64,000 nucleotides of DNA. Origin: Erwinia piriflorinigrans CFBP 5888 (GTDB lineage: Bacteria > Pseudomonadota > Gammaproteobacteria > Enterobacterales > Enterobacteriaceae). The position numbers were made by a program, and so were the translations under genes. Where the stretch lies: assembly GCF_001050515.1 (NCBI RefSeq), contig NZ_CAHS01000021.1:124001-188000 (forward strand), in the 5' to 3' direction. Below, in pieces: positions 9,627 to 32,248 of this stretch. How positions within the stretch are numbered: position 1 is the stretch's first letter; each line of letters starts with the position of its first letter. The notes beneath the pieces are model-generated. The model ran no database searches. It saw only the letters and a list, made by a program, of their open reading frames with translations, and was not told the DNA's origin.

Positions 9627-10301
9627 ATGGATATTTTTAAATCTCTTATGCAAGCCCTGTGGCAACAAGATTATGCTGCCCTCGCAGATCCCTCGCTGGT
9701 ATGGGCGATCTACTTCGTTTTATTTATGATTTTGTTCCTGGAAAATGGTCTGCTGCCCGCCGCTTTTCTGCCGGGCGACAGTTTGCTGATTCTGGTCGGC
9801 GTGCTGATTGCTAAAGGCACGATGAACTTTACCCTGACCTTATTTATCCTGACGACTGCCGCCAGCCTCGGATGTTGGGTCAGTTATATTCAGGGAAGAT
9901 GGCTGGGGAATACGGCCACGGTGCAAAAATGGTTGTCACACCTGCCTGAACATTATCATCAGCGGGCTCATCAGATGTTTCACCGCCACGGCCTTTCTGC
10001 GCTGCTGGTGGGCCGTTTTATCGCCTTTGTCCGCACGCTACTGCCGACTATCGCCGGGCTTTCCGGGCTGAGCAATGCGCGTTTTCAGTTTTTCAATTGG
10101 GCGAGCGCCTTTCTATGGGTGCTGATTCTGACCGTCATCGGCTTCGCGCTGGGTAAAACGCCCATTTTCCGCCAATATGAAGACCAGCTGATGTTCTGTC
10201 TGATGCTATTGCCGCTGGTGCTTCTGGTATTCGGGCTGTTTGGTTCACTGTATGTGTTGTGGCGCAAAAGGCAGTCCGACAATAAGAAAGAAAACTCATG
10301 A
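9627..10301 (+). CDS. yqjA: YqjA, DedA-family inner-membrane protein
   Basis: A 224-residue DedA-family protein (E. coli YqjA about 220). Characteristic features are the acidic [16 protein letters not shown] segment near residue 38 and the [20 protein letters not shown] segment near residue 130, with the two arginines needed in this family. DedA proteins are half-redundant undecaprenyl-phosphate/phospholipid flippase candidates; YqjA is needed for alkaline pH and membrane-potential homeostasis. It overlaps mzrA by four bases (ATGA), matching the E. coli CpxR-controlled yqjA-mzrA operon. Confidence 0.94.
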
Positions 10302-10690
10302 TAACGGCTTTTATGAAAAAGCGTGCTCCACAGCGGCGTCTCACTCTGTGGCTGGCTCTGGCTGCCGTCGCATTATTGGGGCTGGCCATGATGCCAGCCC
10401 TGTTTCGCCACGAGAGCGCGCTGCAAATCCGCGCATCTCGTCAGGGAGCGTCCTTGCCAGACGGTTTTTATGTCTACCAGACATTAAGCGCACAGGGTAT
10501 TCACATCAAGAGCATCACGCCAGAGCAAAACGCTTTGGTGATACGCTTTGAGTCTCTGGAGCAAAGTCACGCGGCAGAGAGAGTCCTGCGAGAGCTGCTG
10601 CCGCATGGTTTTGATATCGCACATCATCAAAACCAGGGGGCCACTGGCTGGATAAACCGCATCAGTATGAGAGCACAATCTATCGGCTAA
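10298..10690 (+). CDS. mzrA: MzrA, modulator of EnvZ/OmpR
   Basis: A 130-residue bitopic inner-membrane protein (E. coli about 127). A basic N-terminus is followed by one transmembrane helix (residues ~15-34) and a periplasmic domain containing [12 protein letters not shown] and [17 protein letters not shown], both recognisable in E. coli MzrA. The protein contacts EnvZ and links the Cpx envelope-stress response to OmpR output. The start used here overlaps the yqjA stop (ATGA); an in-frame ATG 15 bases later is an alternative. Confidence 0.9.
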
Positions 10691-18160: not shown

Positions 18161-20158
18161 ATGCTTCCTTCGAAAGTAGTTCACCGCAAAGCGGTACGCA
18201 CCGTGCCGCTTCTGCTGGCCGCCCTGATTTTTGCCGGTTGTACTGGTCAGGCCCCGCAAACGCCTCAAGCGAATGTGCAAGGCGCGGCCAACGGCACTTC
18301 TGATTATTATCTGCAGCAGGTACAGCAAAGCTCAGATGATAACAAGGTTGACTGGCAATTACTCGCAATCAGAGCGCTGTTAAACGAAGGTAAGGCTCCT
18401 CAAGCCAACGATGCCCTTACGCAGCTGGGCGCGAATCTGAACGCCACCCAGCATCAGGAACAGCTGCTGCTGCTGGCCCAGCTCAATGTTGCCCAGCAAA
18501 ATTTACCGGGTGCCGCCGATCGGCTGAAACAGGTGGATAGCAGCGCGCTTTCTCAGGATCAGCAGGTTCGTTACTACCAGCTACAGATCGCTGCCGGTCA
18601 GGGCCAACCGTCACTTGACGTAGTACGCGCCTGGATAGCCCTGGAACCACTGCAAACGCAGCCAGCGGATAAGCAAAAAAATATCGATAACACCTGGCAG
18701 GCGCTACTGCAGATCCCTCAGCAACAAATCAGCACGCTGACGATTAACGCCAATGAAAACGTGCTGCAAGGTTGGTTAGACCTGCTCGGCGTATATAAAA
18801 ACAACGCCACCTCCCCGGATATGTTGAAATCGGCTATCCAGGACTGGCAAACGCGCTATCCGTATAATCCAGCGGCAAAAATGCTGCCCAGCCCCTTGAC
18901 CCAGACGCAGAACTTACATCCCGCCTCGATGGGGAAAATCGCGCTGCTGCTGCCGTTAAGCGGACAGGCTCAGGTGTTTGCCAATGCTATCCAGAAAGGT
19001 TTCAACGACGCGAAGAACGGCGTGCTGGCTCAGAGTACCGCAGCCCCCTCACCGGCGGTTCCTGGGGTGGTCCCCAGCGATGCAGCCGTCGCCATCAGCC
19101 CTTCGGCAACAACGGCAGATAAAGCCGCAGAAGAACCCGCCCCGGCTAACAGCATAACAACCGCCGCGCCGTCGAGCAGTACGCAGGTTCAGGTTTATGA
19201 CACCAGCACGCAGCCTGTCGAGCAGCTGTTGACCCAGGCACAAAATGATGGCGCTACGCTGGTGGTGGGGCCGCTGCTGAAAAACGATGTCGATAAAATC
19301 GTTAATACCCAGACGGCGCTTAACGTGCTGGCGCTGAATGAGCCGGAATCTCTCCAGAACCGTCCGAATATTTGCTATTTTGCGCTTTCTCCTGAAGACG
19401 AAGCCCGTGATGCTGCGCATCATATGTGGGAACAGGGAAAACGTGCCCCGCTGCTGCTGGTGCCCCGTACCTCACTCGGCGATCGCGTCAACAAGGCCTT
19501 TGCCGCTGAATGGCAAAAGCTCGGCGGCGCGACGGTGCTACAACAGCAGTTTGGTTCTGCCGCCGAGCTGAAACAGGGGATTAACAGCGGCGCGGGTATT
19601 CGTCTGAGCGGCACACCGGTGGACGTGCAGCCGCAGCAGCAAGCAGGCGTAACGATTGCGGGTCTGACTATCCCATCACCGTCAACCGATGCTCAAATCG
19701 GTGCAGCCAGCAGCAACGGCCATGTCGATTCGGTGTATATTGTTGCGACTCAGGACGAAATGATCCTGATTAAGCCGATGATCGCTATGCGCATCAGCAG
19801 CCGTGATAATGTGGGCCTGTACGCCAGCTCACGCAGCTACCAGGCCGGTGCAGGCCCGGACTATCGTCTGGAGCTGGAGGGCTTACAGTTTAGCGATGCA
19901 CCGCTGTTATCCGGTGCTAACCCGGCGCTGATGCAGCAGGCTGCCAAAGCCTTTAACAATGATTATTCACTGGTTCGCCTTTACGCCATGGGCATTGATG
20001 CCTGGACGCTGGCTAACCATTTCAATGAGATGCGTAATCAGCCGGGCTTCCAGGTTAAGGGTGACACCGGTAATTTAAGCGCTAATCAGGACTGTGCCAT
20101 TAACAGGAAGTTGGTATGGAGCCAGTATCATCAAGGACAGATCGTTTCGGGCACCTGA
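18161..20158 (+). CDS. lpoA: LpoA, outer-membrane lipoprotein activator of PBP1A
   Basis: A 665-residue lipoprotein. The signal peptide ends in the lipobox LIFAGC (Cys27), so the start at 18161 is chosen although the frame stays open upstream. The N-terminal TPR-like domain (to ~250) is followed by a periplasmic-binding-protein-like domain starting [12 protein letters not shown]. That domain is interrupted by an Ala/Pro/Ser-rich low-complexity insert (about residues 298-345). LpoA reaches from the outer membrane to PBP1A and stimulates its transpeptidase. It overlaps yraN by 43 bases. Confidence 0.94.
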
Positions 20159-20508
20159 GCCGACAGCAGCAAGGGGCGAACCGTGAAAATCAGGCTCGCC
20201 GCCTGCTGGAAACTTCAGGGTTGCATTTTGTCGCCGCCAACGTGCGCTACCGCATTGGTGAGATCGACCTCATCATGCGGGACAAACAGGTGTGGGTTTT
20301 CGTCGAAGTACGCTATCGCCGCAATGCCCTTTTTGGTGGTGCCGCTATCAGCGTAACCCGTAGTAAACAGCTGAAGCTGTTACAGGCGGCAGCCATGTGG
20401 CTGCATAGCCGCAGGCAGAGTTTCGATACCACCGACTGTCGTTTTGATGTGGTAGCGATAACCGGCGAACAGGTGGAATGGCTGCCCAATGCGTTTACAG
20501 CGGATTAA
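20116..20508 (+). CDS. yraN: YraN, UPF0102 nuclease-fold protein
   Basis: A 130-residue UPF0102 protein (E. coli 131). The restriction-endonuclease-like core is [20 protein letters not shown], with the GEIDLI and FVEVRYR motifs supplying the Asp and Glu typical of the fold. The start lies inside the 3' end of lpoA in another frame. Homologues are found next to DNA-processing or rRNA-modification genes; a Holliday-junction or repair role has been proposed but not proved. Confidence 0.9.
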
Positions 20509-20538
20509 GTCGCCGCGCAAAACAACCAGGTGAATGAC

Positions 20539-21129
20539 GTGCTGGAAAGAATAAAAGTTTGCTTTACCGAAAGTATTCAGACGCAGATCGCAGCGGCAGA
20601 GGCCCTGCCGGACGCAATTTCTCGTGCAGCGATGACCGTGGTTCAGTCGCTGCTTAATGGCAATAAAATTCTCTGCTGCGGCAACGGCACCTCCAGCGCC
20701 AATGCCCAGCATTTTGCCGCCAGTATGATTAACCGCTTTGAAACGGAGCGCCCCAGCCTGCCGGCCATCGCCCTCAGCGCTGATAACGTACTGCTAACGG
20801 CAATTGGTAACGATCGCCTACATGAAGAGATCTATGCCAAGCAGGTACGGGCTTTGGGCCATACCGGCGATATCCTTCTGGCGATTTCAACACGCGGCAA
20901 CAGCCGTGATATTGTCAAAGCCGTAGAGGCAGCGGTCACACGTGATATGACGATTGTCGCGCTGACCGGCCACGATGGTGGAGAACTCGCCGGTCTACTG
21001 GGGCCGCATGATGTCGAAATCCGTATTCCTTCGCATCGAAGCGCGAGAATTCAGGAAATGCATATGTTAACCGTGAACTGTTTATGCGATTTAATAGACA
21101 ACACGTTGTTTCCCCACCAGGAACTTTGA
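20539..21129 (+). CDS. diaA: DiaA, DnaA initiator-associating SIS-domain protein
   Basis: A 196-residue SIS-domain protein, exactly the E. coli length when the GTG at 20539 is used. AGGTGA lies five bases before it; a GTG nine bases earlier is possible but poorly spaced. The SIS phosphosugar-fold signatures [18 protein letters not shown] and [20 protein letters not shown] are intact. DiaA tetramers bind several DnaA molecules and help initiation at oriC. The order yraN-diaA-dolP is conserved. Confidence 0.94.
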
Positions 21130-21140
21130 AGGAGTTCAGT

Positions 21141-21713
21141 ATGAAGGCACTATCTGCATGTGCAGTGATTCTTACCGCGTTGATGCTACAGGGCTGTGTG
21201 GCCGCAGTGGTCGGCAGCGCGGCGGTGGCCACTAAAACCGCCACCGACCCACGTACCGTCGGCACCCAAGTTGATGACGGCACTTTAGAGTTGCGCGTCA
21301 CTAACGCCCTGTCTAAAGATGAACAGATTAAGCAAACCGCCCATATCGTCGCCACCGCCTATCAGGGCAAGGTGCTGCTGACCGGCCAGGCACCGGATAA
21401 TGAGCTGGCGTTACGCGCAAAACAGATTGCTGTTGGCGTTGACGGGGCCACCGAGGTGTATAACGAGATCCGTACCGGCAATAAGGTGAGCTTTGGCACC
21501 GCCTCGTCCGACACCTGGATAACCACCAAAGTGCGTTCGCAGCTGCTGGGTAGCGATCGGGTGAAATCTTCAAGCGTGAAGGTGACCACCGAAAATGGCG
21601 AAGTGTTCCTGCTTGGTCTGGTCACCGATGAAGAAGCCAAAGCGGCAGCGGATATCGCCAGCCGGGTGAACGACGTGAAGCACGTCACCACCGCATTTAC
21701 TATTCTTAAATAA
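21141..21713 (+). CDS. dolP: DolP (YraP), dual-BON outer-membrane lipoprotein
   Basis: A 190-residue lipoprotein. The lipobox is LMLQGC (Cys19), followed by two BON domains (residues ~45-115 and ~120-188). An AAGGAG site precedes the ATG at 21141. DolP binds anionic phospholipid at division sites, supports BamA function and contributes to NlpD-dependent amidase activation. The transcript ends in a hairpin terminator next to the convergent PRD regulator. Confidence 0.95.
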   Translation: MKALSACAVILTALMLQGCVAAVVGSAAVATKTATDPRTVGTQVDDGTLELRVTNALSKDEQIKQTAHIVATAYQGKVLLTGQAPDNELALRAKQIAVGVDGATEVYNEIRTGNKVSFGTASSDTWITTKVRSQLLGSDRVKSSSVKVTTENGEVFLLGLVTDEEAKAAADIASRVNDVKHVTTAFTILK

Positions 21714-21721
21714 CCATTAAC

Positions 21722-21745
21722 AGGGCGGTCGCCGATCGCCCTTTC
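21722..21745 (+). terminator. terminator of dolP
   Basis: GGGCGGTC-gcc-GATCGCCC (eight pairs, one G-U) followed by TTTC. It lies between the convergent dolP and regulator stops and may serve both strands. Confidence 0.65.
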
Positions 21746-23678
21746 ACTCTGCGCGGCTCGCTCCACTTTGCTGTCGGCTTAAACAATCCATCGCTACCGC
21801 TTTAAAACCGGCAAAATCCTTACTGTCTCTCAACCTCACCCCTGCCCGTTCGCGCAAAAAAGTTACAAACAGATCGTATATCGCTATCGCTTCCTCGTAC
21901 TCCGTCTTGCCGATCGCCAGCAGGAAAATCACATATGCCGTTTCATCTCCCCATGCCATCCCCTGTGGCGCCAGCACGGTATAGACACAGGTTTTTTTCG
22001 CCAGCAGTCCGAGGGAGTGCGGCAGGGCAATACCTTCGCCCAGCATCGTGGTGACGATGGCTTCGCGCTCTTCAACAGATGAGTAAAAGGTTTTATCCAC
22101 CATTCCTTCCTGCTCAAGCCGATCGCATAGCTGGCGGAACAGTGCTGAACGATCCGCCGGCCTGTCGAGGATCATAAAGTGGCTGGCATCGAAGAATTTC
22201 TCCAGCATGTAAGGTCGGGTGCGATCCAACAGCACCAGTTTCCCGAGCTGCTCCAGCTGGTACTCGGTGGGAAACGGTGACATCACGACCACCGGCTTAT
22301 CCTTATCGCTAAGGCGTACGGTGGAGATAACAAAATCCTCTTCGACGATCCCCTGCAACTCATATTCACGCAGCGAGATAATCCTTTTCACGACAGCCTG
22401 CGGGTATCTGCGCCACAGCATGGCCTGGATCATACGCACGGTAGAATTACCGGTATCACACACCAGCAGGATCTGTGGATGACGCTGATAGCCCACATTG
22501 TAATGACGCTCCAGCCCGACGCCGATATGCAGTACCAGAAAACCCATTTCATTCTCGCTGATGACCCAGGGCGTATATTTGCTCCAGTTGGATACCGCCG
22601 CCAGCGTTACATCCCATGCCAGAGGATAATGCTGTTTGATATTGCTCAACAGAGGGTTGGGAATGTGGATCTGATAGCGCACGCGAGTGATCATCGTTTT
22701 GATATGCATCAACAGGTCGGCATGCAGCTGCGGGTCGTTTTGCAGATTGAAGTTATAATGGGTGCAGATGTAACAGAGAATATACCTCACCAGCGAGTCA
22801 CCATCATCCGCACCGATTGCGCTGACTGCCAGCGCCTCAACCCGGCGCGCCGCGATGTTAACCCGCAAATACGCTTCCTCGGCCGGCGAGATCGCCTTAC
22901 AAACGACAGAACGCAGCTGATTGATCATATAACAGGCCGCAGCGCGCACCTCATCGTCCACGTCCTCGGCGCTAAAATCCGTCAGTGGATACCCTTCACT
23001 GATGCGTCGCACCGCTACCGCACAATAGAGACGCAGATAAAATTCGCCGTCATCTGCCAGACGAATATTAAAGCGTGACAGGCTCTGTTGTAGCAGCGGT
23101 TGCAGCCGATCGAGGATGCCGCTGTATAGTCCCTCCACCTTGAGCAACGGGCTGTCGCTATCTTCAGTGGCTATCTGATAAAACAGGTCGGTCAGGCAGG
23201 TGCGTATTGCCATCTCGCTGCCGAACAGCTTCATGCCATAGCGCGGCCTGGATTCAATGATCAGCTGATAACGCGCCAGCCGATCCCTGACCTCGGCCAT
23301 ATCACTTTGCAGCGTGGTGCGGCTGACAAACCATTCGTCGGCCAGATCTTCCAGCTTGAGTGAAAAAGCCGAGGTGAGGAAGCGGGTTAACAGATAGTTT
23401 ATGCGTTCAGCGGAGGTGCGCGGGACGCGCAGAGGAGAAGATGACTGTTGTAAGAGCTGCTGATAGCGCTCCGCGTTAGCAATCTTCAAACGGTAGCCCG
23501 CGCCACGGCTGAGTACAAAGCAGGCTGCATAATCCTGTAGCAACTCATTAAGCACGTTAATATCGGTGCGCACCGTGCGCGTAGAAACGTCAAGACGCCG
23601 CGCCAGCTCGTCCTGCGGCAGCGTTTCATTTTGCAAGATAGCAAACAGTTGGCCCAGTCGTTGGTTAGGGAATCTCAC
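21744..23678 (-). CDS. MtlR/LicR-type transcriptional activator (HTH-HTH-PRD-PRD-EIIB-EIIA)
   Basis: A 644-residue regulator. An HTH_11 domain (residues 1-55, DELARRLDVSTRTVRTDINV) and a second, Mga-like HTH (about 85-165) precede two PRD domains (about 185-400). An EIIB-type domain carries its phospho-cysteine in LLVCDTGNSTVRMIQ (about residue 410). The C-terminal EIIA(Fru/Mtl)-type domain has its His in GIALPHSLGLL (about 555). Such proteins are switched by PTS phosphorylation. It is the last gene of the amino-sugar-type operon and probably its activator. No standard PTS permease is encoded nearby, so the phosphate donor is an open question. Confidence 0.88.
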   Translation of the reverse strand: MRFPNQRLGQLFAILQNETLPQDELARRLDVSTRTVRTDINVLNELLQDYAACFVLSRGAGYRLKIANAERYQQLLQQSSSPLRVPRTSAERINYLLTRFLTSAFSLKLEDLADEWFVSRTTLQSDMAEVRDRLARYQLIIESRPRYGMKLFGSEMAIRTCLTDLFYQIATEDSDSPLLKVEGLYSGILDRLQPLLQQSLSRFNIRLADDGEFYLRLYCAVAVRRISEGYPLTDFSAEDVDDEVRAAACYMINQLRSVVCKAISPAEEAYLRVNIAARRVEALAVSAIGADDGDSLVRYILCYICTHYNFNLQNDPQLHADLLMHIKTMITRVRYQIHIPNPLLSNIKQHYPLAWDVTLAAVSNWSKYTPWVISENEMGFLVLHIGVGLERHYNVGYQRHPQILLVCDTGNSTVRMIQAMLWRRYPQAVVKRIISLREYELQGIVEEDFVISTVRLSDKDKPVVVMSPFPTEYQLEQLGKLVLLDRTRPYMLEKFFDASHFMILDRPADRSALFRQLCDRLEQEGMVDKTFYSSVEEREAIVTTMLGEGIALPHSLGLLAKKTCVYTVLAPQGMAWGDETAYVIFLLAIGKTEYEEAIAIYDLFVTFLRERAGVRLRDSKDFAGFKAVAMDCLSRQQSGASRAE

Positions 23679-23787
23679 GAGTTACCCCTTTTCCCGTTGG
23701 CGGCTCTGGGGAACGGATACATTCCTCCAGCCTCATTTTTTTCGTGATGAAAAAATAGCCCCGGTAATAACTAGGGCCGGATTCATA

Positions 23788-24528
23788 TCAATCCACCAGC
23801 TTCTTGGTTATCGCCAGCAGCCTTGCCACGTCTTCAGGTCGCGTCAGACCCGTGGATTTATCCATTATCGAGCTGTAGATATGCGGGATTATCTTACTGA
23901 CGCCGGCATCCAGTGCGAACTGCAGGATCGCTGCAAAGTTATTTACATCGATCCCCCCGGTCGGCTCCAGCCAGAAATCCTGTGCGGCGCAGGCGGCAGC
24001 CACCGCCTTAAACTCATCAATGGTATGCAGGCCATTCATCGGGAAGTATTTCACCGAACTGCCGCCCATATCCTTCAACAGCGCCACCGCCGTTGCCACC
24101 GGAACCACGCCGTCTGCCTCCCTGCCACTGAGCGGGCCGGTAGAGATTTTTACCATGCCGGGTCGCCCCGTGGGTGAGATCAACCCATTGACCACAGTCT
24201 GTGACTGCCCAAGCAGCGTGCGCGAGGCCGCCACGCCGGTAAACACCTGGTTAACGTGTTGCGGCTGGATACGGGCGGCGATTGCACTAACCATTGTTGA
24301 CTGATTCGGATCGCCAGCACCAAGACCCACCGACAACGCATTATCGATTAATGCCGCATATTCGCGCATATCGCTCACCGCACTGTCCACGTCGTCATAA
24401 TCTTTCGATAATACGCCGACAAGCACATGGCCTTCGGCCGCCTCCCAGATATCACGCGCATTCTGTTTTGAACCGGCCAGTACGTTGAGACATACCCTGC
24501 CACGATAGAAATGAGGTGTTAGCGTCAT
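23788..24528 (-). CDS. KDGP-aldolase family protein (DgaF-like)
   Basis: A 246-residue TIM-barrel protein of the family paired with DgaE-like lyases. Recognisable segments are VCLNVLAGSKQNARDIWEAA, VVNGLISPTGRPGMVKISTG and WLEPTGGIDVNNFAAIL, with lysines in the strands expected for a Schiff-base aldolase. The start is the ATG that overlaps the stop of the lyase gene (ATGA); an upstream in-frame ATG is not needed. By analogy with Salmonella DgaF it would cleave 2-keto-3-deoxygluconate 6-phosphate into pyruvate and glyceraldehyde 3-phosphate. The true substrate here is inferred. Confidence 0.85.
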   Translation of the reverse strand: MTLTPHFYRGRVCLNVLAGSKQNARDIWEAAEGHVLVGVLSKDYDDVDSAVSDMREYAALIDNALSVGLGAGDPNQSTMVSAIAARIQPQHVNQVFTGVAASRTLLGQSQTVVNGLISPTGRPGMVKISTGPLSGREADGVVPVATAVALLKDMGGSSVKYFPMNGLHTIDEFKAVAAACAAQDFWLEPTGGIDVNNFAAILQFALDAGVSKIIPHIYSSIMDKSTGLTRPEDVARLLAITKKLVD

Positions 24529-25646
24529 GGGCGTTGATCCCCGGCAATAAGGGCGCGAATACAAGAAAAAACGGTGTGCAGCTGATCAACAGTCACGCTG
24601 CGTACGTCGACTTCAACAATCCCTTCATTGGCCTTGTAGCCTCGGAAATAGATAGCGATATCACCGGTTTTCAGTGACTGGACAATCTCACCGGCGGTGC
24701 GGCCCAGCTTCGCCTCGTCGAAATGGATTTCCGCCCGCGCAATGTCCCGTCCGGCTGCATCCCACACCACGCGCGCCTCAACACCCGGCAGTTGGTTAAG
24801 ATGAGCGATAAACGGCGTCATTTTTTCCACCATCTGCCTGCCAGTCACCCTGGCACGCAGCAGATAGTTTTCAATCGCCAGGGTCAGACCGAGGATGCCC
24901 TCTTTGCCAACCTTCATCGCCCGGCCAATGCCCTGCGATTGCCTTTTCACCCATTCGACATACTGCGTTTTGCCGACAACCAACCCGCTGGTCGGCCCTT
25001 CAATCGCTTTGGCTCCGCTGTAGACAACCAGATCGGCACCGGCGTTAGAGTAAGCCTGTAAATCTTCTTCAGCAGCAGCATCAACGATCAGTGGAACGCC
25101 GTGCTGGCGCGCGACGGCTGCCGCTTCTTCAACGCTAAGATGGCTTTTTTGCACGCAGTGGTGCGATTTAATATACAGGATCGCGGCAGTTTGCCCGGTG
25201 ATCGCCGCTGAAAGCTGCTCCGCTGAGCATTCGTTGGCATAACCCGCTTCCACCAGCCGCCCTCCGCCCAACGCCACCATCGTGCCAACCGGCGCGCCAT
25301 AGTTTACGTTGTGACCTTTCGGCAACACGATGTCATGAGCAACGGTCAACGGGGCAGCATGGAGATTATCCAGCAGCCAGACATTATCCTTAATAATCAG
25401 TGCGGCCACCGACTGGGCGAGACCGGCCGATGCACAGGAAACCACCAGCGCCGCTTCACAGCCGAGTAACCCGGCGATGTAAGCACCGCTTTTATTGACC
25501 AAGTCGTTGATTTCAAAATAGTGATTCAGGCCAAATTTCACCGTTTCCACCACATCCGCACTCGGGGTAGAGACACCGAGGATCGTCATGCGCCCGGAGG
25601 CATTGATCACCTGCTTCAAGCCATATTTGTCATAAACAGAGGTCAT
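24525..25646 (-). CDS. DgaE-like PLP-dependent ammonia lyase (SelA-related)
   Basis: A 373-residue fold-type I PLP enzyme related to selenocysteine synthase. The PLP lysine is in VYSGAKAIEGPTSG (near residue 215), after the cofactor-binding LIVDAAAEEDLQAY. The relative DgaE removes ammonia from D-glucosaminate 6-phosphate to give 2-keto-3-deoxygluconate 6-phosphate. An ATG 18 bases upstream is in frame, but GGGAAAA suits the 25646 start. The gene overlaps the amidohydrolase by 17 bases and the aldolase by four. The three consecutive enzymes suggest deacylation, deamination and aldol cleavage. Confidence 0.87.
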   Translation of the reverse strand: MTSVYDKYGLKQVINASGRMTILGVSTPSADVVETVKFGLNHYFEINDLVNKSGAYIAGLLGCEAALVVSCASAGLAQSVAALIIKDNVWLLDNLHAAPLTVAHDIVLPKGHNVNYGAPVGTMVALGGGRLVEAGYANECSAEQLSAAITGQTAAILYIKSHHCVQKSHLSVEEAAAVARQHGVPLIVDAAAEEDLQAYSNAGADLVVYSGAKAIEGPTSGLVVGKTQYVEWVKRQSQGIGRAMKVGKEGILGLTLAIENYLLRARVTGRQMVEKMTPFIAHLNQLPGVEARVVWDAAGRDIARAEIHFDEAKLGRTAGEIVQSLKTGDIAIYFRGYKANEGIVEVDVRSVTVDQLHTVFSCIRALIAGDQRP

Positions 25647-26769
25647 TACGTTTTTTCCCTTCATCGGTCATAAATCCCTGCCCGCCGACCACGGCGACCA
25701 GCGGCACCAGCTGTATTGCACCGGGCAGCGCCTGCCCGTCAGAATCACCGAACAGGCAATCGGCCTGATGCAGGTCAAAAATCGTCAAATCGGCGACATA
25801 ACCCGGCTCGAGACGGCCAATATCTGCCAGGCGCAGCCCGCACGCGGCGTGCACGGTCACACAGTCGATCACCTGCTGTAGGGTCATACCAATATGTAAG
25901 AACTTCGACATAACGTGTGCCAGGCTATGTACCGGGCCATGAATACGATTGCGACAATAAATATCTGAACTGATGGTATGCGGCAAAATCCCCTGAGCAA
26001 TGGCCGCCCGCGCCACCTCAAAACTGAAGCTGGCGCTCCCGTGGCCCACGTCCAGCCGCACGCCACGCTGCAACGCGCGGGTGACCGATGCGCGCAAAGT
26101 ACCGGAAGGAGACAGAATGCGGTTCGGTTTGCCGTTATAACAGTGAGTGATAATATCGCCAGCGGTCAGTTGATCGGCGATCTCATCAAGATGCGGCGGA
26201 TCGTTACCGATATGAACCATCAGCGGCAGTTGGCCGTTATTCCGCTGTATGACTTTGGCGCGCTGCAACGGTTTAATACCATTTTGCTCTACCACGCTGC
26301 TGCTGATACGGGCCTTGAGGCCAAGAATAAACCCCTGATGCCGCTGCAATGCGGCTTTCACCGCCTGCTCGTCGAGGTTTGCCATATCAGCCAGTTCGTT
26401 CTGGGTAAGAATACCGCTGCGGGCAATATTGAGCAGTGCATAGACCCTGGTGCTGGCACTGCGAACCTGCTGAAAGAAGTCATCAATATTGTCGGCTCCG
26501 GTGCTGCCCGCATCCACCACCGTCGTCACCCCGCTTTCTATCCCGATGCGGTCAGCTTCATCATGGTAAATCGGCGATGTCGGATAGCAGTGAACATGCG
26601 AATCAATCCACCCCGCACTAAGCCAGTAACGCCCAGCCAGATCCCACTCGCGCACTGCCGTGTCAGACAGCATGCCAACGGCGGCAATTTTCCCCTGGTT
26701 TATCGCAATATCACTGAGCGAACCGTCGCTAAGACGGGCCTGCCGAATAATCAGATCAAACATGGCCAA
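25630..26769 (-). CDS. amidohydrolase/deacetylase family metallohydrolase
   Basis: A 379-residue amidohydrolase-superfamily enzyme. The metal ligands are visible in order: HxH in GWIDSHVHCYP (about residues 58-60), the probable carbamylated lysine in LGLKARISSS, His in PLMVHIGNDPP, His in IITHCYNGKPN and Asp in TISSDIYCRN. The fold is that of dihydroorotase and N-acetylglucosamine-6-phosphate deacetylase. In this operon it probably opens an amide or lactam, or removes an acyl group, before the PLP lyase acts. The start is the first of two close ATGs. Confidence 0.86.
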   Translation of the reverse strand: MAMFDLIIRQARLSDGSLSDIAINQGKIAAVGMLSDTAVREWDLAGRYWLSAGWIDSHVHCYPTSPIYHDEADRIGIESGVTTVVDAGSTGADNIDDFFQQVRSASTRVYALLNIARSGILTQNELADMANLDEQAVKAALQRHQGFILGLKARISSSVVEQNGIKPLQRAKVIQRNNGQLPLMVHIGNDPPHLDEIADQLTAGDIITHCYNGKPNRILSPSGTLRASVTRALQRGVRLDVGHGSASFSFEVARAAIAQGILPHTISSDIYCRNRIHGPVHSLAHVMSKFLHIGMTLQQVIDCVTVHAACGLRLADIGRLEPGYVADLTIFDLHQADCLFGDSDGQALPGAIQLVPLVAVVGGQGFMTDEGKKRNDLCL

Positions 26770-26808
26770 CTCCTGAGCGCGGAGGCGTCCCGTCCCCGCG
26801 CGGGTTAG

Positions 26809-27459
26809 TTACAGTGCGATAGGGAAGATTGCCCCCAGCAGCATCGCCCCGAGGATAGCCCCACCGGTGATAGGCTTATTCCACAGATAGAACAACAGTG
26901 AGCCGACCAGCGAACCCAGTCCAATAGGAATGGACGCACTGATGGCAGACAGAACAATTAACGGCCCGAGAAAACGACCTGCTGCATTGCCCGCCCCCAT
27001 CATCACGTCAGCGCCATAGGTGGAGTCGCTGTTATTAATGGTAAATTTGCGCGCCAGAATAATCAGGTAGCCGACCATCAGGCCGAGTATCAGCCCGGTA
27101 ACCAGTGCGGCAGCAAAGTGAGCTATCGGGAAAATAAACCCGCTCCCCAGCAACATCGCCGGCACGCCCAAGCCGATACCGGTCTGGATGGCACCACCAA
27201 TATCAAGGATCCCGACCAGTGAACCTTCAATAATGCGCGCAAACAGAAAGCTGGCACCAAAGGCGGCTACCGCACCGTAGACGCCCGTTTCCATGCCGGA
27301 TCGTAGCATCGAGACAAAAGCGACCTCGTTAAATGCGCCCAGCCCGTAGACGTAATACATATGCGTACCGGCAAACACTCCGGCGGAAAGCAGACCAACT
27401 AAGATCGGAAACGACCAGTCCGCATACCAGAAACCGCTTTTTGACTCATCCATTGCCAT
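26809..27459 (-). CDS. DUF4310 family membrane protein (putative transporter subunit)
   Basis: A 216-residue polytopic membrane protein with glycine-rich helices (IGLGVPAMLLGSGFIFPIAHF, ASIPIGLGSLVGSLLFYLW), recognised as the DUF4310 family. It follows the DUF4311 gene by seven bases and is always expected in the same small operon with DUF4311, DUF4312 and SFCGS genes. It has no ATP-binding or known carrier motif. I infer a transport subunit, by position upstream of catabolic enzymes. The 39 bases before the amidohydrolase gene contain no terminator. Confidence 0.8.
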   Translation of the reverse strand: MAMDESKSGFWYADWSFPILVGLLSAGVFAGTHMYYVYGLGAFNEVAFVSMLRSGMETGVYGAVAAFGASFLFARIIEGSLVGILDIGGAIQTGIGLGVPAMLLGSGFIFPIAHFAAALVTGLILGLMVGYLIILARKFTINNSDSTYGADVMMGAGNAAGRFLGPLIVLSAISASIPIGLGSLVGSLLFYLWNKPITGGAILGAMLLGAIFPIAL

Positions 27460-27466
27460 CGTCCTT

Positions 27467-28243
27467 TTATTTACCGTTCAGGGTGTTGTGGAGCATATCC
27501 AGCCAGCCCGGTATACCCAGCTGGAAAGATTGCAGCACCTTCATATCGAATCCACGGAAGAAACCGCTAAGCACAAACAGCAGGATAATGGCTGCCATCA
27601 TCACTTTCGTCACCCGGTTCCAGCCGCTCTCTTCCACCCCTTTACCGATCAAAATACCCAGCACCAGCCCCGGTACGGCGTTACCCATCATCAGCTGCGC
27701 CAGCCCACCAAAAATGGTGGCCCAGAAACCCGACTTTTTGCCTGCATCGATCGCCGCCAGCCAGAACAGTACCGGCATAACGGTATTCACCAGCAGATTA
27801 GCCGCAGGAACCAGCACCTTGACCGCAGTGAGCTGTAAAGCTGCGGGCACCGCCGATGCGGTGGAATTAAGAAACGCCACGACGATCATGCCAATGATGC
27901 CGCAGGCTATCGCCATTTTCTTCGGGTTGTGCAGGGTCTGTGCCAGGTTGCGGTTTTTCATCATCAGCGCCGCAGCTCCCCAGTTGGGGATGATGCGGTG
28001 ATCAACATCTTGGGTGAAAGAACCAGCTGCCACCGAAGAGGCCCAGGCATTGAAAAAGAATCCGAGACCGAAGGAGAAGTGAGAAGCCGGATCGCCCTCA
28101 CAGGAGTTCAGTTCACCGAGTGTACGAAATGCGCCCATGCCCTGTATGGTGGGCGCATGAAACATACGGGCTGCCCCGGCTCCCACTCCCACGCCGACCA
28201 GACCGCCAATAATTAACGACTTGAATAATATGATTAAAAACAT
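27467..28243 (-). CDS. DUF4311 family membrane protein (putative transporter subunit)
   Basis: A 258-residue membrane protein. Its first helix is LFKSLIIGGLVGVGVGAGAA, with a conserved loop GAFRTLGELNSCEGDPASHF and FGLGFFFNAWASSVAAGSF. The size and the paired arrangement with DUF4310 are reminiscent of the IIC/IID pair of mannose-type PTS permeases, but I see no sequence proof of homology. The substrate should be the amino-sugar-acid-like compound processed by the downstream enzymes. Mechanism unknown. Confidence 0.8.
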   Translation of the reverse strand: MFLIILFKSLIIGGLVGVGVGAGAARMFHAPTIQGMGAFRTLGELNSCEGDPASHFSFGLGFFFNAWASSVAAGSFTQDVDHRIIPNWGAAALMMKNRNLAQTLHNPKKMAIACGIIGMIVVAFLNSTASAVPAALQLTAVKVLVPAANLLVNTVMPVLFWLAAIDAGKKSGFWATIFGGLAQLMMGNAVPGLVLGILIGKGVEESGWNRVTKVMMAAIILLFVLSGFFRGFDMKVLQSFQLGIPGWLDMLHNTLNGK

Positions 28244-28275
28244 CCGCTTTTCCTTTTTGTTATCGCCAAACGTTT

Positions 28276-28575
28276 TTATTTCACGGTGCTGAATTCCACT
28301 TTGTCGGTCGCTATCGCGACGACATTGACAACGATCTCCAACTCAACGCCATAAAGCCACTTTTCGCGCGCCAGAAAGAAAAAAAGAAACTTCTCCTTAC
28401 GCACGCGTTGCCACGCGCGCAGCACCCGCACGTCAACCGGTTCAATACGGAGCAGGACGTTATCGCTGGATTTCAACACCGTGTTTTGCACCTGACTTAG
28501 CGCTGCGGCAAAAGCTTTGGCTTTGCTGTCACCTTTACCGCTGACCTTCACCGTGGTGGTGAATTGCTCTTTCAT
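28276..28575 (-). CDS. DUF4312 family small protein
   Basis: A 99-residue protein starting MKEQFTTTVKVSGKGDSKAKAF. The start ATG shares its A with the SFCGS stop (TGATG), so an in-frame ATG further upstream is rejected. It is an alpha/beta protein without signal peptide or membrane helix, and has a basic, aromatic stretch (RVRKEKFLFFFLAREKWLYG). The family is defined by this operon, and its role is unknown. A cytoplasmic accessory subunit of the transporter is the simplest reading. Confidence 0.78.
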   Translation of the reverse strand: MKEQFTTTVKVSGKGDSKAKAFAAALSQVQNTVLKSSDNVLLRIEPVDVRVLRAWQRVRKEKFLFFFLAREKWLYGVELEIVVNVVAIATDKVEFSTVK

Positions 28576-28934
28576 CAGGCTGGCTTCTTCTGCCACGCCA
28601 CGACCAGCCGCTCACCCAGCTCTTCTTGGTCCATAAAGCCGAAACCCAGCACGATAGCGCCTTCATTGATTGCGGTAACGCCCTCCTCTATGGAACGCAT
28701 ACCGTGTTTCACCTTATAGCCATATTTGTTCTGAGCCGTGATAGCACCCGCACCACCGCTGCCGCAGAAGGAGATACCGAAGTCGGCGTTTTCTGCCTTC
28801 ATCACGTCTCCCAGCTTCATATCTGCCGCTACTCCCGGCACCACGATGGCATGGCCTCCTGCTTTCTCAATGCCTGCCGCCACTTTCTGTCCCTTTCCCA
28901 GACGATCGCCGATAACAACGGTGATTTTAGACAT
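28575..28934 (-). CDS. glycine-rich SFCGS family protein
   Basis: A 119-residue protein named after the motif it contains, FGISFCGSGGAGAITAQ (about residues 53-69). N-terminal MSKITVVIGDRLGKGQKVA resembles a small Rossmann-like or EIIB-like fold. The conserved cysteine in a glycine-rich loop could be a phosphorylation or nucleophile site, in line with the cysteine of small PTS EIIB proteins; this is speculation. A longer open frame runs upstream, but family length and context support 28934. It follows the stand-alone PRD gene by ten bases. Confidence 0.8.
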   Translation of the reverse strand: MSKITVVIGDRLGKGQKVAAGIEKAGGHAIVVPGVAADMKLGDVMKAENADFGISFCGSGGAGAITAQNKYGYKVKHGMRSIEEGVTAINEGAIVLGFGFMDQEELGERLVVAWQKKPA

Positions 28935-28944
28935 AGTGATCCCC

Positions 28945-29295
28945 TTAATTTTCGTTTGCTTTGGCGACTTCAAAATGCACCGATAGCAGCCAGGCCTCTT
29001 CAACAGGCAGATTGCCAAACAGGTCCAGCACCTGCTGAGCCAGCGCCATCGACTGCGGAGAAATATCTTCAAACAGGTCGGCTTCCACTTCGGGAAGCGC
29101 TTCTCCGGTGAGTGAGCGCAGCGCCATCGCCCGTACATGGGAAGCCAACATGTGTTGCTGTACCGAATTGGGCTGAATATTTCTTTCGGCAAACAGCCTG
29201 GCAATTTGCGTCATTACTCGTGCAGCCTGTCGTTGAATATCGCTATCCCTTTCTGCCACTACGCTCACCGACGCCGTTCCTTTACTCACCGCCAT
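28945..29295 (-). CDS. stand-alone PRD-domain protein
   Basis: A 116-residue protein made almost entirely of one PTS-regulation domain. QQHMLASHVRAMALRSLTGE and WLLSVHFEVAKAN carry the two histidine positions typical of PRDs. There is no DNA- or RNA-binding domain. It is the first gene of the minus-strand operon. PRDs are phosphorylated by HPr or EIIB, so this protein may sense PTS state, or pass a phosphate to the transporter or to the large regulator encoded at the operon's end. The function is not established. Confidence 0.78.
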   Translation of the reverse strand: MAVSKGTASVSVVAERDSDIQRQAARVMTQIARLFAERNIQPNSVQQHMLASHVRAMALRSLTGEALPEVEADLFEDISPQSMALAQQVLDLFGNLPVEEAWLLSVHFEVAKANEN

Positions 29296-30205
29296 CCCCC
29301 CTTATCCACAATGCAAATAAACTAGCCCGGCAGCGGCTGACTGTGTAGAACGACTTTTTCCGCCACGAAGTGGAAATAAGTGGGTCATGGCTGGGCCATA
29401 TCGCAAAAGCGTTAAAACGGGCAGAGAAAAAAACGAAATAATGCCTGTCTCCCCGCACGCACCATAAGGATCCACACCCTATAATCGATATTTCGGCGTT
29501 TTTCTCAGTGTGCACCGTTATATAAAAGCCTCTTCACTAACATGCTCTTAGAAAAAACTTTATTCTGACAGGTATGCACCTGGCGACGCATGCATCGAGA
29601 CGTTTTTTTGATAGACACAGCAATCGTTAGTAGGGATTCTCGAAGATCAAACTTTAATCCAGAATTCAGTGATAATAAGTGGAAAAATTTTATCTGTATT
29701 TCATAACGGATGGGTGAACCATCCGCGCCCTAACATCACGCCACGATTGGTCAGTTTTTTTGTCAAAAATCAGTGGGGTTAATAATTCTGCGGAGAAGTC
29801 GGCCAGGCAGAATAAGACCGGGGAGTACAAGACTAACAGACCACTAAAATATGGTGACAAGACTTGTCTTCCCGCATGGGCTATACATGATGAAGGAAAG
29901 AAACCGGTAAATAACATGATAAATGTCTATAACAATAGCAATTATTTTATACCAGACAGCACCGACACGACTACTGAGCTTCCACTCCTTTGTTAGTCAA
30001 CTTTATGACGCTTTTTTCGTCGGTGGTGGTTAAAAAAACTCTGTTATTTAGCTGATGTGGAGAACTGTTTATAGAAAGCATTTACTGCAACTGTCGGGAT
30101 CGGCATGTTTAACAAAGAGAACCTTTTCGCTCTCATTGCAGTAAGGTTAAAAAGGAGACGGTTTTCACCGTCGCCTTTTCAGCATATAGAGGTAAGTGGG
30201 GAAAA
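29296..30205. other. intergenic region before the DUF4310-4312 operon
   Basis: About 910 bases without a credible gene; the two short overlapping open frames near 29690-29996 have no ribosome site and are rejected. The left 200 bases should carry the operon promoter, but I cannot pick clear boxes. From 29530 the DNA is AT-rich. At 30082-30144 TTACTGCAA and TTGCAGTAA pair across an inner AGAG/CTCT stem, directly before the pmbA terminator hairpin. Confidence 0.55.
30148..30178 (-). terminator. terminator of pmbA
   Basis: GGAGACGGT-tttc-ACCGTCGCC (one mismatch), with TTTTT after it on the minus strand and TTTT on the plus strand. It lies 28 bases after the pmbA stop and is probably bidirectional. 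Confidence 0.75.
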
Positions 30206-31546
30206 TTACTGCCCGGCGATCTTCATTTCGGGTAACAGAACCGATCCGCACTGAATATTGCTGCGCGTTTCAATATCACTCCCTACCGAGACCATATTAC
30301 GCCACATATCTTTCAGGTTACCCGCTATAGTGATCTCACTCACCGGATACTGAATAACGCCATTTTCTACCCAGAAACCTGAAGCGCCACGCGAATAATC
30401 GCCGGTGATCCCACTGACGCCCTGCCCCATCAGTTCTGTCACCAGTAACCCGGTTCCGAGCTGTTTCAGCATGCCATCAAAACTGTGTCCCTGCCCGGCA
30501 ATGCGCCAGTTATGAATACCGCCTGCATGGCCCGTGCTCTGCAAGCCCAGCTTACGCGCCGAGTAGCTGGTCAGTAGCCAGTTCTGCAACACGCCATCTT
30601 TAACGATGTCACGCCGCTGGGTGCGCACCCCTTCGCTGTCGAACGGCGTTGAAGCCAGCCCTTTCAGCAGATGTGGATGTTCTTCAATAGTCAGCCATTC
30701 AGGCAAGATCTGTTGACCAAGCGAGTCGAGCAGGAAAGTGGATTTGCGGTACACGCTTCCACCACTGATCGCCCCAACAAGATGACCAAAAAGCCCGGTG
30801 GCGACTTCAGCGGCAAACATCACCGGCGCTTTCATCGTCGACAGTTTACGCGGAGACAGGCGCGACAGCGTACGGCGTGCGCACTCTTCACCGACATATT
30901 CAGGCGACTTGAGGTCTTCCATCGCCCGGCCAATGGTGTAAGCGTAGTCCCGCTCCATATCACCGTTTTCTTCCGCGATAACGCAGCTGGAGAGTGAGTG
31001 GCGGCTGGAGCAATAGCCCTGGATCATGCCGTGGCTGTTGCCAAATACTTTAATGCCGACGTGGCTGTTAAAGCTGCCGCCTTCGGTATTGGTAATACGC
31101 TTATCGGATTTTAACGCCGCCTGCTCTGCGCGGGCTGCCAGCTCGATAGCGCGATCGGCGTCGATCTCGCTCGGATGGAACAGATCAAGATCCGGTGTGT
31201 CAAACGCCAGCAGTTCAGGATCCGCCACGTCGGCATAGGGATCCGGCGAGGTATAACGCGCAATATCCAGCGCGGCCTGCACGGTGCGCTGAATAGCATC
31301 CTGACTGAGGTCTGTTGAAGAAGCGCTACCTTTACGATTCTGGTAATAAACGGTAATGCCCAGCGCGCCATCACTGTTGAATTCAACATTTTCCACGGCG
31401 CCGTAGCGTGTGCTGACGCTGATACCGGTCGTTTTAGTGACCGCCACCTCCGCCCCGTCGCTGCTGACGCTTGCCAGTTTGAGCGCTGTCGCTACCGCCT
31501 GTTCCAGGATTTTTCGCTGTTCTGCAACTTGGGAGAGTAATTTCAT
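30206..31546 (-). CDS. pmbA: PmbA (TldE), metalloprotease complex subunit
   Basis: A 446-residue member of the TldD/PmbA family, the same size as E. coli PmbA. Typical stretches are [20 protein letters not shown] near the N-terminus, and [19 protein letters not shown] with [15 protein letters not shown] near the C-terminus. With TldD it forms the heterodimeric zinc protease that degrades CcdA and matures microcin B17. PmbA itself lacks the HExxxH site, as expected. It is divergent from darP, as in E. coli. Confidence 0.96.
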
Positions 31547-31708
31547 TGACCTACCATATAATTAAAAAAGGGCGGTTTTTCGGCGGCTTAGCCTGCGGTA
31601 AAATCGCGCTATGGTGATTACGTTATTTTGAGTCTAACAGACTAAGAGAACAATTTCGCAGTAGCAGCGTAACCTGATAACATTAGCCTCTTTTTTTGGA
31701 GCCTGACC

Positions 31709-32248
31709 ATGACCAAGCAGCCTGACGAGTGGCTCGATGAAGTACCCGATAACAATGAAGAAGATGAAGAGATTATCTGGGTCAGTAAGAGTGAAATTAA
31801 ACGTGATGCCGAAGAACTTAAACGCCTTGGGGCAGAGCTGATTGAACTGGGGAGTAACTCCCTTGACAGGATCCCACTGGATGAAGATCTGCGCAGCGCC
31901 ATTGAACTGGCGCAGAAGATCAAGAAAGAGGGCCGCCGCCGCCAGTTACAGCTGATTGGTAAGATGCTGCGCTCACGCGACGAAGAACCGATCCGCACCG
32001 CACTGGATAAGCTGAAAAACCGTCACAACCAGCAGGTCGCGCTTTTCCACAAGCTTGAGGTGATGCGCGATCGCCTGGTTGAGCAGGGAGATGATGCGGT
32101 AGCCGACGTGCTGGCACTCTATCCGGATGCCGATCGCCAGCAGCTGCGTGCAATGATCCGCAACGCGCAGAAAGAGAAAGCGGATAATAAACCGCCTAAA
32201 GCCTACCGTCAGATCTTCCAGTATCTGCGCGAGCTGGCCGAAGCCTGA
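31709..32248 (+). CDS. darP: DarP (YjgA), 50S ribosome-associated assembly factor
   Basis: A 179-residue DUF615 protein (E. coli 183). It begins with an acidic tail ([16 protein letters not shown]), then a helical domain with [20 protein letters not shown] and [17 protein letters not shown], as in YjgA/DarP. The protein co-sediments with late 50S precursors near the peptidyl-transferase centre. A TTTGGAG site precedes the ATG. Hairpins with the arms GGCGAACC/GGTTCGCC follow the stop and may end both darP and the convergent mpl. Confidence 0.95.

What the first reader, a model, noticed from the sequence alone, without database searches (positions are those of the whole stretch)
21744..29295. 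Nine-gene operon with unassigned transporter families and a three-step amino-compound catabolic route
Seen: nine same-strand genes with overlaps or short gaps (PRD, SFCGS, DUF4312, DUF4311, DUF4310, amidohydrolase, DgaE-like lyase, KDGP-type aldolase, PRD/EIIB/EIIA activator). Known: DgaE and DgaF split D-glucosaminate 6-phosphate in Salmonella, fed there by a mannose-type PTS. Inference: here the PTS is replaced by DUF4310/4311/4312/SFCGS, and an amidohydrolase is added. The substrate is therefore likely an N-acylated or lactam form of an amino sugar acid, and the transport mechanism is new.
Basis: partly seen in the sequence, partly recalled or inferred. Interest (0 to 1): 0.75.

Follow-up and report, generated by a model that had tools for sequence, protein, structure and literature searches.

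The report
PTS-linked amino-sugar-acid uptake operon
A widely shared bacterial gene set of unknown function probably imports an acetylated amino-sugar acid through an unassigned four-protein transporter and breaks it down to pyruvate, with help from the cell's sugar phosphotransferase system, and this can now be tested at the bench.

Summary
The nine genes are real, in the order and at the coordinates given. They are a typical member of a gene set that NCBI models already name 'conserved hypothetical' (EF_0829 to EF_0839 / AHA_3910 to AHA_3917). In 76 of 86 loci all nine genes were found. My searches of the held papers found no assignment of transporter or substrate. New here: (1) cassettes in two unrelated lineages (Bartonella plasmids, a Bacillota genome) carry their own HPr and Enzyme I with active-site histidines kept; (2) SFCGS resembles the RpiB/LacAB sugar-phosphate-isomerase superfamily; (3) a stand-alone PRD protein with two invariant histidines is fused to SFCGS in one genome; (4) a 20-bp dyad (TTTCCACTTYGAAGTGGAAA-like) precedes the PRD gene in 83 of 89 loci, including the window; (5) 30 of 86 loci have a lactonase, 26 with a signal-peptide-like start. 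Best reading: uptake and breakdown of an N-acetylated 2-amino-2-deoxy-aldonate through D-glucosaminate-6-phosphate or a similar intermediate. The claim that the PTS is 'replaced' is only half right: a recognisable EII permease is absent, but the PTS seems still to be needed. Transport chemistry and substrate remain inferred. A chitin-LPMO association was tested and not supported.

The parts
29357..29376 (-). putative operator: 20-bp dyad TTTCCACTTCGTGGCGGAAA, 62-81 bp upstream of the PRD start
   Evidence: within 2 mismatches at the 12 fixed positions in 83 of 89 loci (54 exact) against 31 of 890 dinucleotide shuffles; window: 1 match with up to 3 mismatches to the full dyad, 0.01 expected
28945..29295 (-). 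stand-alone PRD protein, 116 aa
   Evidence: TIGR03582 125.1 bits (cut-off 69.35); H53 and H107 in 87/87
28575..28934 (-). SFCGS protein, RpiB/LacAB-like, invariant Cys57 in CGSGG
   Evidence: PF14272, TIGR03577; LacAB_rpiB match in 25 of 31 members, best E 9.3e-4
28276..28596 (-). DUF4312 small soluble protein (ATG at 28575 also possible)
   Evidence: PF14189, TIGR03578; no hydrophobic segment
27467..28243 (-). DUF4311 integral membrane protein, 258 aa
   Evidence: PF14188, TIGR03580; hydrophobic segments; all-helical model, pLDDT 69
26809..27459 (-). DUF4310 integral membrane protein, 216 aa
   Evidence: PF14187, TIGR03579; hydrophobic segments; low-confidence helical model, pLDDT 61
25630..26763 (-). 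amidohydrolase/deacetylase of the EF_0837 family (the listed ORF starts at TTG 26769)
   Evidence: TIGR03583 524 bits (cut-off 432); relatives with structures 8wzy, 2ics, 2ogj, 8je0; D56, H58, H60, K152, H186, H209, D269 in 89/89
24525..25664 (-). DgaE-family PLP ammonia-lyase
   Evidence: TIGR01437 573 bits (cut-off 385); aligned to D-glucosaminate-6-P ammonia lyase 7lc0
23788..24525 (-). KDGP aldolase
   Evidence: PF07071; NF047796 377.5 bits (cut-off 300); structures 3m0z, 3lm7, 3nzr
23749..23778 (-). terminator-like hairpin and T run between aldolase and activator
   Evidence: fold z -2.16; not flagged by the consensus scan
21744..23678 (-). activator: HTH, Mga, PRD, EIIB-like stretch (by eye), EIIA_2
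   Evidence: Pfam; PRD His325 and His384 in 80/80; EIIB-like Cys 65 C/15 T, EIIA His 73 of 80

Best explanation
The operon takes up and degrades an N-acylated 2-amino-2-deoxy-aldonic acid, most likely N-acetyl-D-glucosaminate or an epimer, under control of and probably coupled to the PTS. DUF4311 and DUF4310 form the membrane permease; SFCGS (RpiB-like), DUF4312 and the PRD protein form its cytoplasmic part, with HPr-P acting on the PRD histidines. Inside the cell the amidohydrolase removes the acyl group, the DgaE-type lyase eliminates ammonia to give 2-keto-3-deoxygluconate 6-phosphate, and the aldolase yields pyruvate and glyceraldehyde 3-phosphate. In about a third of loci a lactonase first opens the lactone, probably outside the cytoplasm. 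The activator binds the TTTCCA-N8-TGGAAA dyad. Shown: gene content, conservation, dyad, conserved catalytic-type residues, HPr/EI linkage, one PRD-SFCGS fusion. Inferred: substrate, transport, phosphoryl route, order of deacylation and phosphorylation, activator-dyad binding.
For: Invariant amidohydrolase metal-ligand residues and lyase Arg triad, and the lyase His pair in 86 and 88 of 88; the phosphate of D-glucosaminate-6-P was docked by hand near these Arg in the solved lyase. No ORF like the E. faecalis PfkB kinase or E. coli KdgK in the other 85 of 86 loci nor in the five Bacillota loci L109-L113, so phosphate should come from transport or from elsewhere in the genome. HPr-EI directly after the activator on two Bartonella plasmids (domains checked in one) and HPr+EI after the cassette in Bacillota genome G520, with HPr His15 and EI His189 kept. 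PRD His invariant in 87/87 and 80/80. PRD fused to SFCGS in G635. SFCGS and DUF4311 are well conserved to Bacillota: 66-77% and 57-70%, against 39-54% for amidohydrolase and lyase. PRD-SFCGS-4312-4311-4310 occurs without the enzymes in G605. A Cof-type HAD, recognised by eye only, follows the aldolase in four Bacillota cassettes, as expected if phosphosugars are made. 14 of 15 cassette genomes tested have an EI-type gene.
Against: No EIIA, EIIB or EIIC match in the transporter proteins; DUF4312 has no conserved His or Cys and SFCGS no conserved His. The activator's EIIA His and EIIB-like Cys are not universal. E. faecalis adds a PfkB kinase (59/199 identical to KdgK) and an ordinary EIIC, which fits an unphosphorylated route. 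The lyase Arg triad is also kept in 8t7j, of unknown substrate, so it is not proof of a phosphate. Genome G359 has the cassette but no EI or HPr in the draft; its contig ends inside a broken activator, so this is not decisive. The HPr/EI linkage could serve regulation only, and G520 has two further EI-type genes. The lyase fails the strict D-glucosaminate-6-P model. No clear fold match for DUF4311 or DUF4310.
Confidence: 0.5

Rival explanations
1. Same substrate class, but the transporter is an ordinary secondary permease; deacetylation and deamination act on unphosphorylated sugar acid, a housekeeping KDG kinase phosphorylates, and the PTS only controls the PRD regulators. This is the logic of the ong pathway of chitin oxidation.
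For: ong pathway: GlcNAc1A, deacetylase OngB, OngC, KDG, KdgK (PMC9537276, passages). E. faecalis cassette has a KdgK-like kinase. No universal phospho-carrier residue in the activator's EIIA/EIIB parts or in DUF4312.
Against: The Arg triad near the docked phosphate is invariant in 88/88 lyases. No KdgK-like ORF in the other 85 loci. The PRD protein also travels with an SFCGS-like protein and a membrane protein in the yhf operons of E. coli and Cetobacterium, whose regulator is YhfZ and not the PTS activator, so it is not simply a helper of the activator.
Confidence: 0.3
2. The substrate is not an amino-sugar acid but another N-acyl or O-acyl D-2-amino or D-2-hydroxy acid, and the DgaE/DgaF-like enzymes act on an analogous intermediate.
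For: cog3964 relatives are recalled, not read, to hydrolyse acetyl-(R)-mandelate and, weakly, N-acetyl-D-serine. The lyase scores 372.1 against a 600-bit cut-off for the D-glucosaminate-6-P enzyme.
Against: The aldolase passes the KDPG-type cut-off (377.5 against 300 bits), and Arg triad and His pair are kept.
Confidence: 0.15
3. The DUF proteins are not a transporter but a membrane-bound sensor or metabolon scaffold; uptake uses another system.
For: Transport was never shown; the models are of low confidence and match no known transporter clearly.
Against: No other permease recurs in the gene run; the E. faecalis EIIC has no similar ORF in the other 85 loci (single-locus extra ORFs were not identified). 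The conserved charged residues in DUF4311 could line an anion path.
Confidence: 0.05

Closest known systems
EF_0829-EF_0839 / AHA_3910-AHA_3917 hypothetical cassette (TIGR03577-TIGR03583, TIGR01437)
   Same: all eight family cut-offs are met and the genes co-occur
   Different: the models assign no function except the lyase family name; the PTS link, dyad, RpiB relation and fusion are added here
Salmonella dgaABCDEF (D-glucosaminate)
   Same: ammonia-lyase and KDGP aldolase steps; His pair and Arg triad
   Different: PTS permease genes absent; amidohydrolase added; lyase below the strict model cut-off
ong cluster (N-acetyl-D-glucosaminate from oxidised chitin)
   Same: deacetylase, then deamination to a keto-deoxy acid
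   Different: OngB is D-aminoacylase-like (PMC12017989, abstract), import is by a sodium-solute symporter and KdgK is in the cluster (PMC9537276, passages)
yhf operon (E. coli yhfS-yhfZ, Cetobacterium)
   Same: stand-alone PRD next to an SFCGS-like DUF2620 protein, a membrane protein of unknown function, an amidohydrolase-type and a PLP enzyme; PRDs alike, pairwise hhalign E 4.5e-6
   Different: YhfT shows no sequence similarity to DUF4311/4310; other enzymes; regulator YhfZ; second PRD His absent in the two yhf PRD sequences read by eye

Membership tests
EF_0829/AHA_3910 cassette | eight NCBIfam models over their cut-offs, in one cluster | tested here: met
   all eight; cluster
Salmonella Dga system | mannose-family PTS permease genes | tested here: not met
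   no EII permease domain in the nine genes; the activator's EIIA_2 domain is not a permease
[quoted passage not shown]
   372.1 bits, cut-off 600
Salmonella Dga system | DgaF-type aldolase NF047796 | tested here: met
   377.5 bits, cut-off 300
Salmonella Dga system | His162/163 and Arg301/332/346 of the lyase | tested here: met
   paper; alignment; conservation 86-88 of 88
PTS permease (EII complex) | recognisable EIIA/EIIB/EIIC/EIID domain in transporter genes | tested here: not met
   Pfam scans
PTS permease (EII complex) | EIIC-like fold | tested here: inconclusive
   low-confidence models; no strong match
PTS permease (EII complex) | substrate phosphorylated by PEP, EI and HPr | not testable with these tools
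   only gene linkage of HPr/EI seen
RpiB/LacAB superfamily (SFCGS) | sequence match to PF02502 | tested here: inconclusive
   25 of 31 members match, best E 9.3e-4, window member 13.1 bits against 24.7; hhalign to RpiB E 0.0011, probability 21%
ong pathway | KDG kinase in cluster and D-aminoacylase-type deacetylase | tested here: not met
   no kinase among the nine genes and amidohydrolase of the EF_0837 family; no KdgK-like ORF in the window
yhf-type operon | YhfT membrane protein | tested here: not met
   hhalign to DUF4311/4310: E 0.11 and 0.25; no YhfT Pfam match

The most novel reading that the evidence does not exclude
PRD, SFCGS, DUF4312, DUF4311 and DUF4310 are a new class of PTS permease: HPr-P phosphorylates the stand-alone PRD domain, which serves in place of EIIA; it passes phosphate to the RpiB-like SFCGS protein (invariant Cys57) in place of EIIB; and DUF4311/DUF4310 carry and phosphorylate the sugar acid. 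The E. coli yhf operon would be a sister class.
Probability: 0.22. Interest if true: 0.88.

Novelty: new variant of a known kind. Interest (0 to 1): 0.6.

Why it matters
If the PTS coupling holds, it would be a new class of group-translocating permease and would give a reason for PRD proteins that lack a DNA-binding part. The putative operator and the predicted substrate make the question directly testable.

Tried and rejected
DUF4311/4310 related to YhfT: the weak E. coli match of the DUF4311 model was at first taken for YhfT; its place was not shown, but two similar weak matches read out (L009, L010) are DjlA-like membrane stretches, and hhalign gave nothing.

DUF4310 related to MtrC of methanogens: only a hint in the annotation note of the Salmonella copy; profile search of solved structures and Pfam/NCBIfam scans gave no MtrC match.

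Chitin-LPMO association: of 295 genomes of the order, 41 have DUF4311 over its cut-off and 79 an LPMO; 16 have both (39% of cassette genomes, against 63 of 254, 25%, of the others). Eleven of the 16 are one genus (g183); outside it 5 of 30 (sets recounted). Not supported as the general source. Near the LPMO gene of the window's genome no dyad with fewer than 2 mismatches was found; two with 2 mismatches were.

Operator elsewhere: one exact site in each of 55 listed loci of 136; no wider regulon could be searched.

My notes call the genus Serratia (entry 1); one search shows the nearest named locus is Erwinia sp. 198 (76% DNA identity), so that label was wrong. My note that activator-first loci lack the dyad (entry 3) was corrected.

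A scan of viral contigs gave no relative. Eight phage-collection records hold the gene; they look like bacterial DNA. E. coli genomes gave no match at the sensitivity used. No Rfam match in 20000-32000.
Full report
OBSERVATION. The nine genes are present on the minus strand at 21744-29295, tightly packed (gaps 7, -22, 32, 7, 39, -20, -1, 109 with the starts used). The families are TIGR03582, 03577, 03578, 03580, 03579, 03583, 01437 and 03581; seven of the eight bear EF_08xx and mostly AHA_39xx locus names, so the cassette was evidently seen as a unit and left as hypothetical. The window genome's nearest relative among my loci is Erwinia sp. 198 (76% DNA identity over 10,993 aligned bases). All 36 genomes of its genus that were searched, its own included, carry DUF4311.

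CO-OCCURRENCE. With five plasmid-collection records and the window, 76 of 86 loci contain all nine genes. The ten exceptions are L020 (three genes not found), L033, L058, L060, L086 (no activator), L043 (no DUF4312), L045 and L089 (short contigs), L078 and L091 (no aldolase); L033, L045, L058, L086 and L089 reach a contig end. The kept loci are biased: they are the best-scoring, mostly Gammaproteobacteria. Even draws gave 7 of 299 genomes in the window's phylum, 6 of 299 over the cut-off in the phylum of Enterococcus genome G357 and 41 of 295 over the cut-off in the window's order.

VARIANTS. (a) Thirty of 86 loci have a beta-propeller lactonase, 29 of them placed in the gene run; by eye 26 of 30 N-termini look like signal peptides and four (L066, L072, L073, L097) do not (no predictor was run). 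(b) E. faecalis inserts a PTS EIIC, a 99-aa protein and MupG and adds a PfkB kinase; Enterococcus viikkiensis shows none of these in its run. (c) Four Bacillota genomes (L109, L110, L112, L113) have activator, amidohydrolase, PRD, SFCGS, DUF4312, DUF4311, DUF4310, lyase, aldolase, then a Cof-type HAD judged by eye. In L110 the PRD and DUF4312 were not matched by similarity, only ORFs of fitting place; in L112 the PRD is fused to SFCGS. (d) G605 has activator, PRD, SFCGS, DUF4312, DUF4311 and DUF4310 without the enzymes nearby. (e) Two Bartonella plasmids place an EI gene directly after the activator; the one scanned is a 671-aa HPr-EI fusion. (f) Genome G520 has separate HPr and EI genes after the HAD gene. 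HPr His15 and EI His189 are kept in both. G520 has two further EI-type genes, so its cassette EI is not its only one.

PROTEINS. Amidohydrolase: D56, H58, H60, K152, H186, H209 and D269 are in 89 of 89; lyase: H168 in 86 of 88, H169, R310, R341 and R355 in 88 of 88 (379-aa numbering). These Arg align with Arg301, 332 and 346 of the Salmonella lyase, near which the phosphate of the substrate was placed by manual docking (PMC9529869, first of three parts of the text read). The same three Arg are also kept in 8t7j, of unknown substrate, so they are not proof of a phosphate. PRD: H53 and H107 in 87 of 87. Activator: PRD His325 and His384 in 80 of 80; EIIB-like Cys in 65 of 80 (15 Thr), EIIA His in 73 of 80. 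SFCGS: Cys57 in 89 of 89 (numbered there on a longer ORF); 25 of 31 members match LacAB_rpiB (best E 9.3e-4) and 11 match DUF2620 (best 2.2e-3), with unrelated families such as DUF1685 (17 of 31, best 0.004) at similar E-values. NCBIfam shows the same tendency (RPI_actino 0.0087; LacB 0.1). hhalign to E. coli RpiB gave E 0.0011 (probability 21%) and set the CGSGG of SFCGS on the CGTG of RpiB. A profile search of solved structures found no RpiB. In G635 PRD (2e-9) and SFCGS (7e-60) are one 249-aa ORF. That genome also has an in-frame TAG in DUF4311, so its cassette may be decaying. Proteins shorter than 80% of the median were left out of these counts.

CONSERVATION. Window against Enterococcus and other Bacillota copies: SFCGS 66-77%, DUF4311 57-70%, DUF4310 54-70%, lyase 42-54%, amidohydrolase 39-44%, aldolase 33-61%, DUF4312 24-50%, PRD 26-42%, activator 19-26%. 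The membrane pair and SFCGS are on the whole more conserved than the enzymes; DUF4312 and PRD are not.

OPERATOR. Upstream of PRD a dyad with core TTTCCA-N8-TGGAAA, consensus TTTCCA(C/G)TTYGAA(G/C)TGGAAA, lies within 2 mismatches in 83 of 89 loci (54 exact), against 31 of 890 dinucleotide-shuffled controls. The six misses are L043, L016, L059, L110, L112 and L113. The hit in L111 (2 mismatches, not a clear dyad) may be chance. It is present with 2 mismatches on the Bartonella plasmids. The window has one copy, 29357-29376. That the activator binds it is an inference from its conserved place.

SISTER OPERON. E. coli yhfS-yhfZ and Cetobacterium hold a stand-alone PRD, a DUF2620 protein and the membrane protein YhfT with amidohydrolase-type and PLP enzymes. 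The PRDs are alike (pairwise hhalign E 4.5e-6); SFCGS and DUF2620 weakly; the membrane proteins are not. There the regulator is YhfZ, without the PTS activator, so the PRD protein more likely serves the transporter than the activator. This is inference.

MECHANISM. Deacylation, ammonia elimination and aldol cleavage follow from the families. Phosphate must enter before the aldolase. Either the transporter does it, driven by HPr/EI, or a kinase elsewhere does. Against the first: no EII domain, no conserved His in SFCGS or DUF4312, and the activator's EIIA/EIIB residues are not universal. For it: HPr/EI beside the cassette in two lineages, PRD histidines, PRD-SFCGS fusion, no KdgK-like kinase in 85 of 86 loci. 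An EI-type gene was found in 14 of 15 cassette genomes tested; the exception, G359, also lacks HPr, but its contig ends in a broken activator. I hold the PTS-coupled reading somewhat above the ong-like one.

LITERATURE. Full-text searches for the four family names, cog3964/EF0837/Atu3266, annotation strings, yhf genes and STM numbers listed no paper that I recognised, from titles and abstracts, as a functional study of the transporter; subscription papers are mostly not held. Seen: PMC9529869 (part 1 of 3), PMC9537276, PMC11653859, PMC11000858 and PMC7396535 (passages), PMC12017989 (abstract and outline). PMC11000858 lists STM4441-2 among unknown genes as crp-regulated (its note points to RegPrecise) and STM4446 under protein synthesis, probably through the old selenocysteine-synthase name. 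PMC7396535 reports a duplicated dgaE in 100% and dgaF in 97.5% of the E. faecalis strains analysed. In the Salmonella record the notes that could be read in full tie PRD, SFCGS, DUF4312, DUF4311 and aldolase to STM4440-STM4443 and STM4447; the other numbers follow by order. Specificities of cog3964 enzymes are recalled only.

VERDICT.

Noticed in passing
L112:10637-11383 (-), genome G635: PRD and SFCGS are fused in one 249-aa ORF; the same cassette has an in-frame TAG in DUF4311.
   Followed up: partly
L111 (genome G605): Activator and transporter genes without the three enzymes, followed by unrelated genes.
   Followed up: no
L053, L054, L056, L061, L071 (Rouxiella and relatives): The cassette lies tail to tail with a 90-aa HPr-like (probably NPr) gene and what looks by eye like the rapZ/ptsN nitrogen-PTS cluster.
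   Followed up: no
L017, L018: On the bat-faeces Bartonella plasmids the cassette and its EI gene sit next to type VI secretion genes.
   Followed up: no
L016 about 18570-19324: The E. faecalis record lists no gene for the aldolase, which appears as two ORFs; it may be interrupted in this record.
   Followed up: no
L131:9714-10358: The annotation note of Salmonella DUF4310 names a methanogen MtrC as KEGG match (0.00030); not reproduced here.
   Followed up: partly
L136 (genome G000 contig C17) about 9107-10633: The window's genome encodes an LPMO_10 protein next to a run of genes that look by eye like type II secretion genes.
   Followed up: partly
L129:7294-15657: A yhf operon in Cetobacterium (Fusobacteriota) adds an amidase-family gene; a parallel orphan system.
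   Followed up: no
hits H17, H18, H21-H24: Phage-collection records without annotation carry this bacterial gene; they look like host DNA in the assemblies.
   Followed up: no
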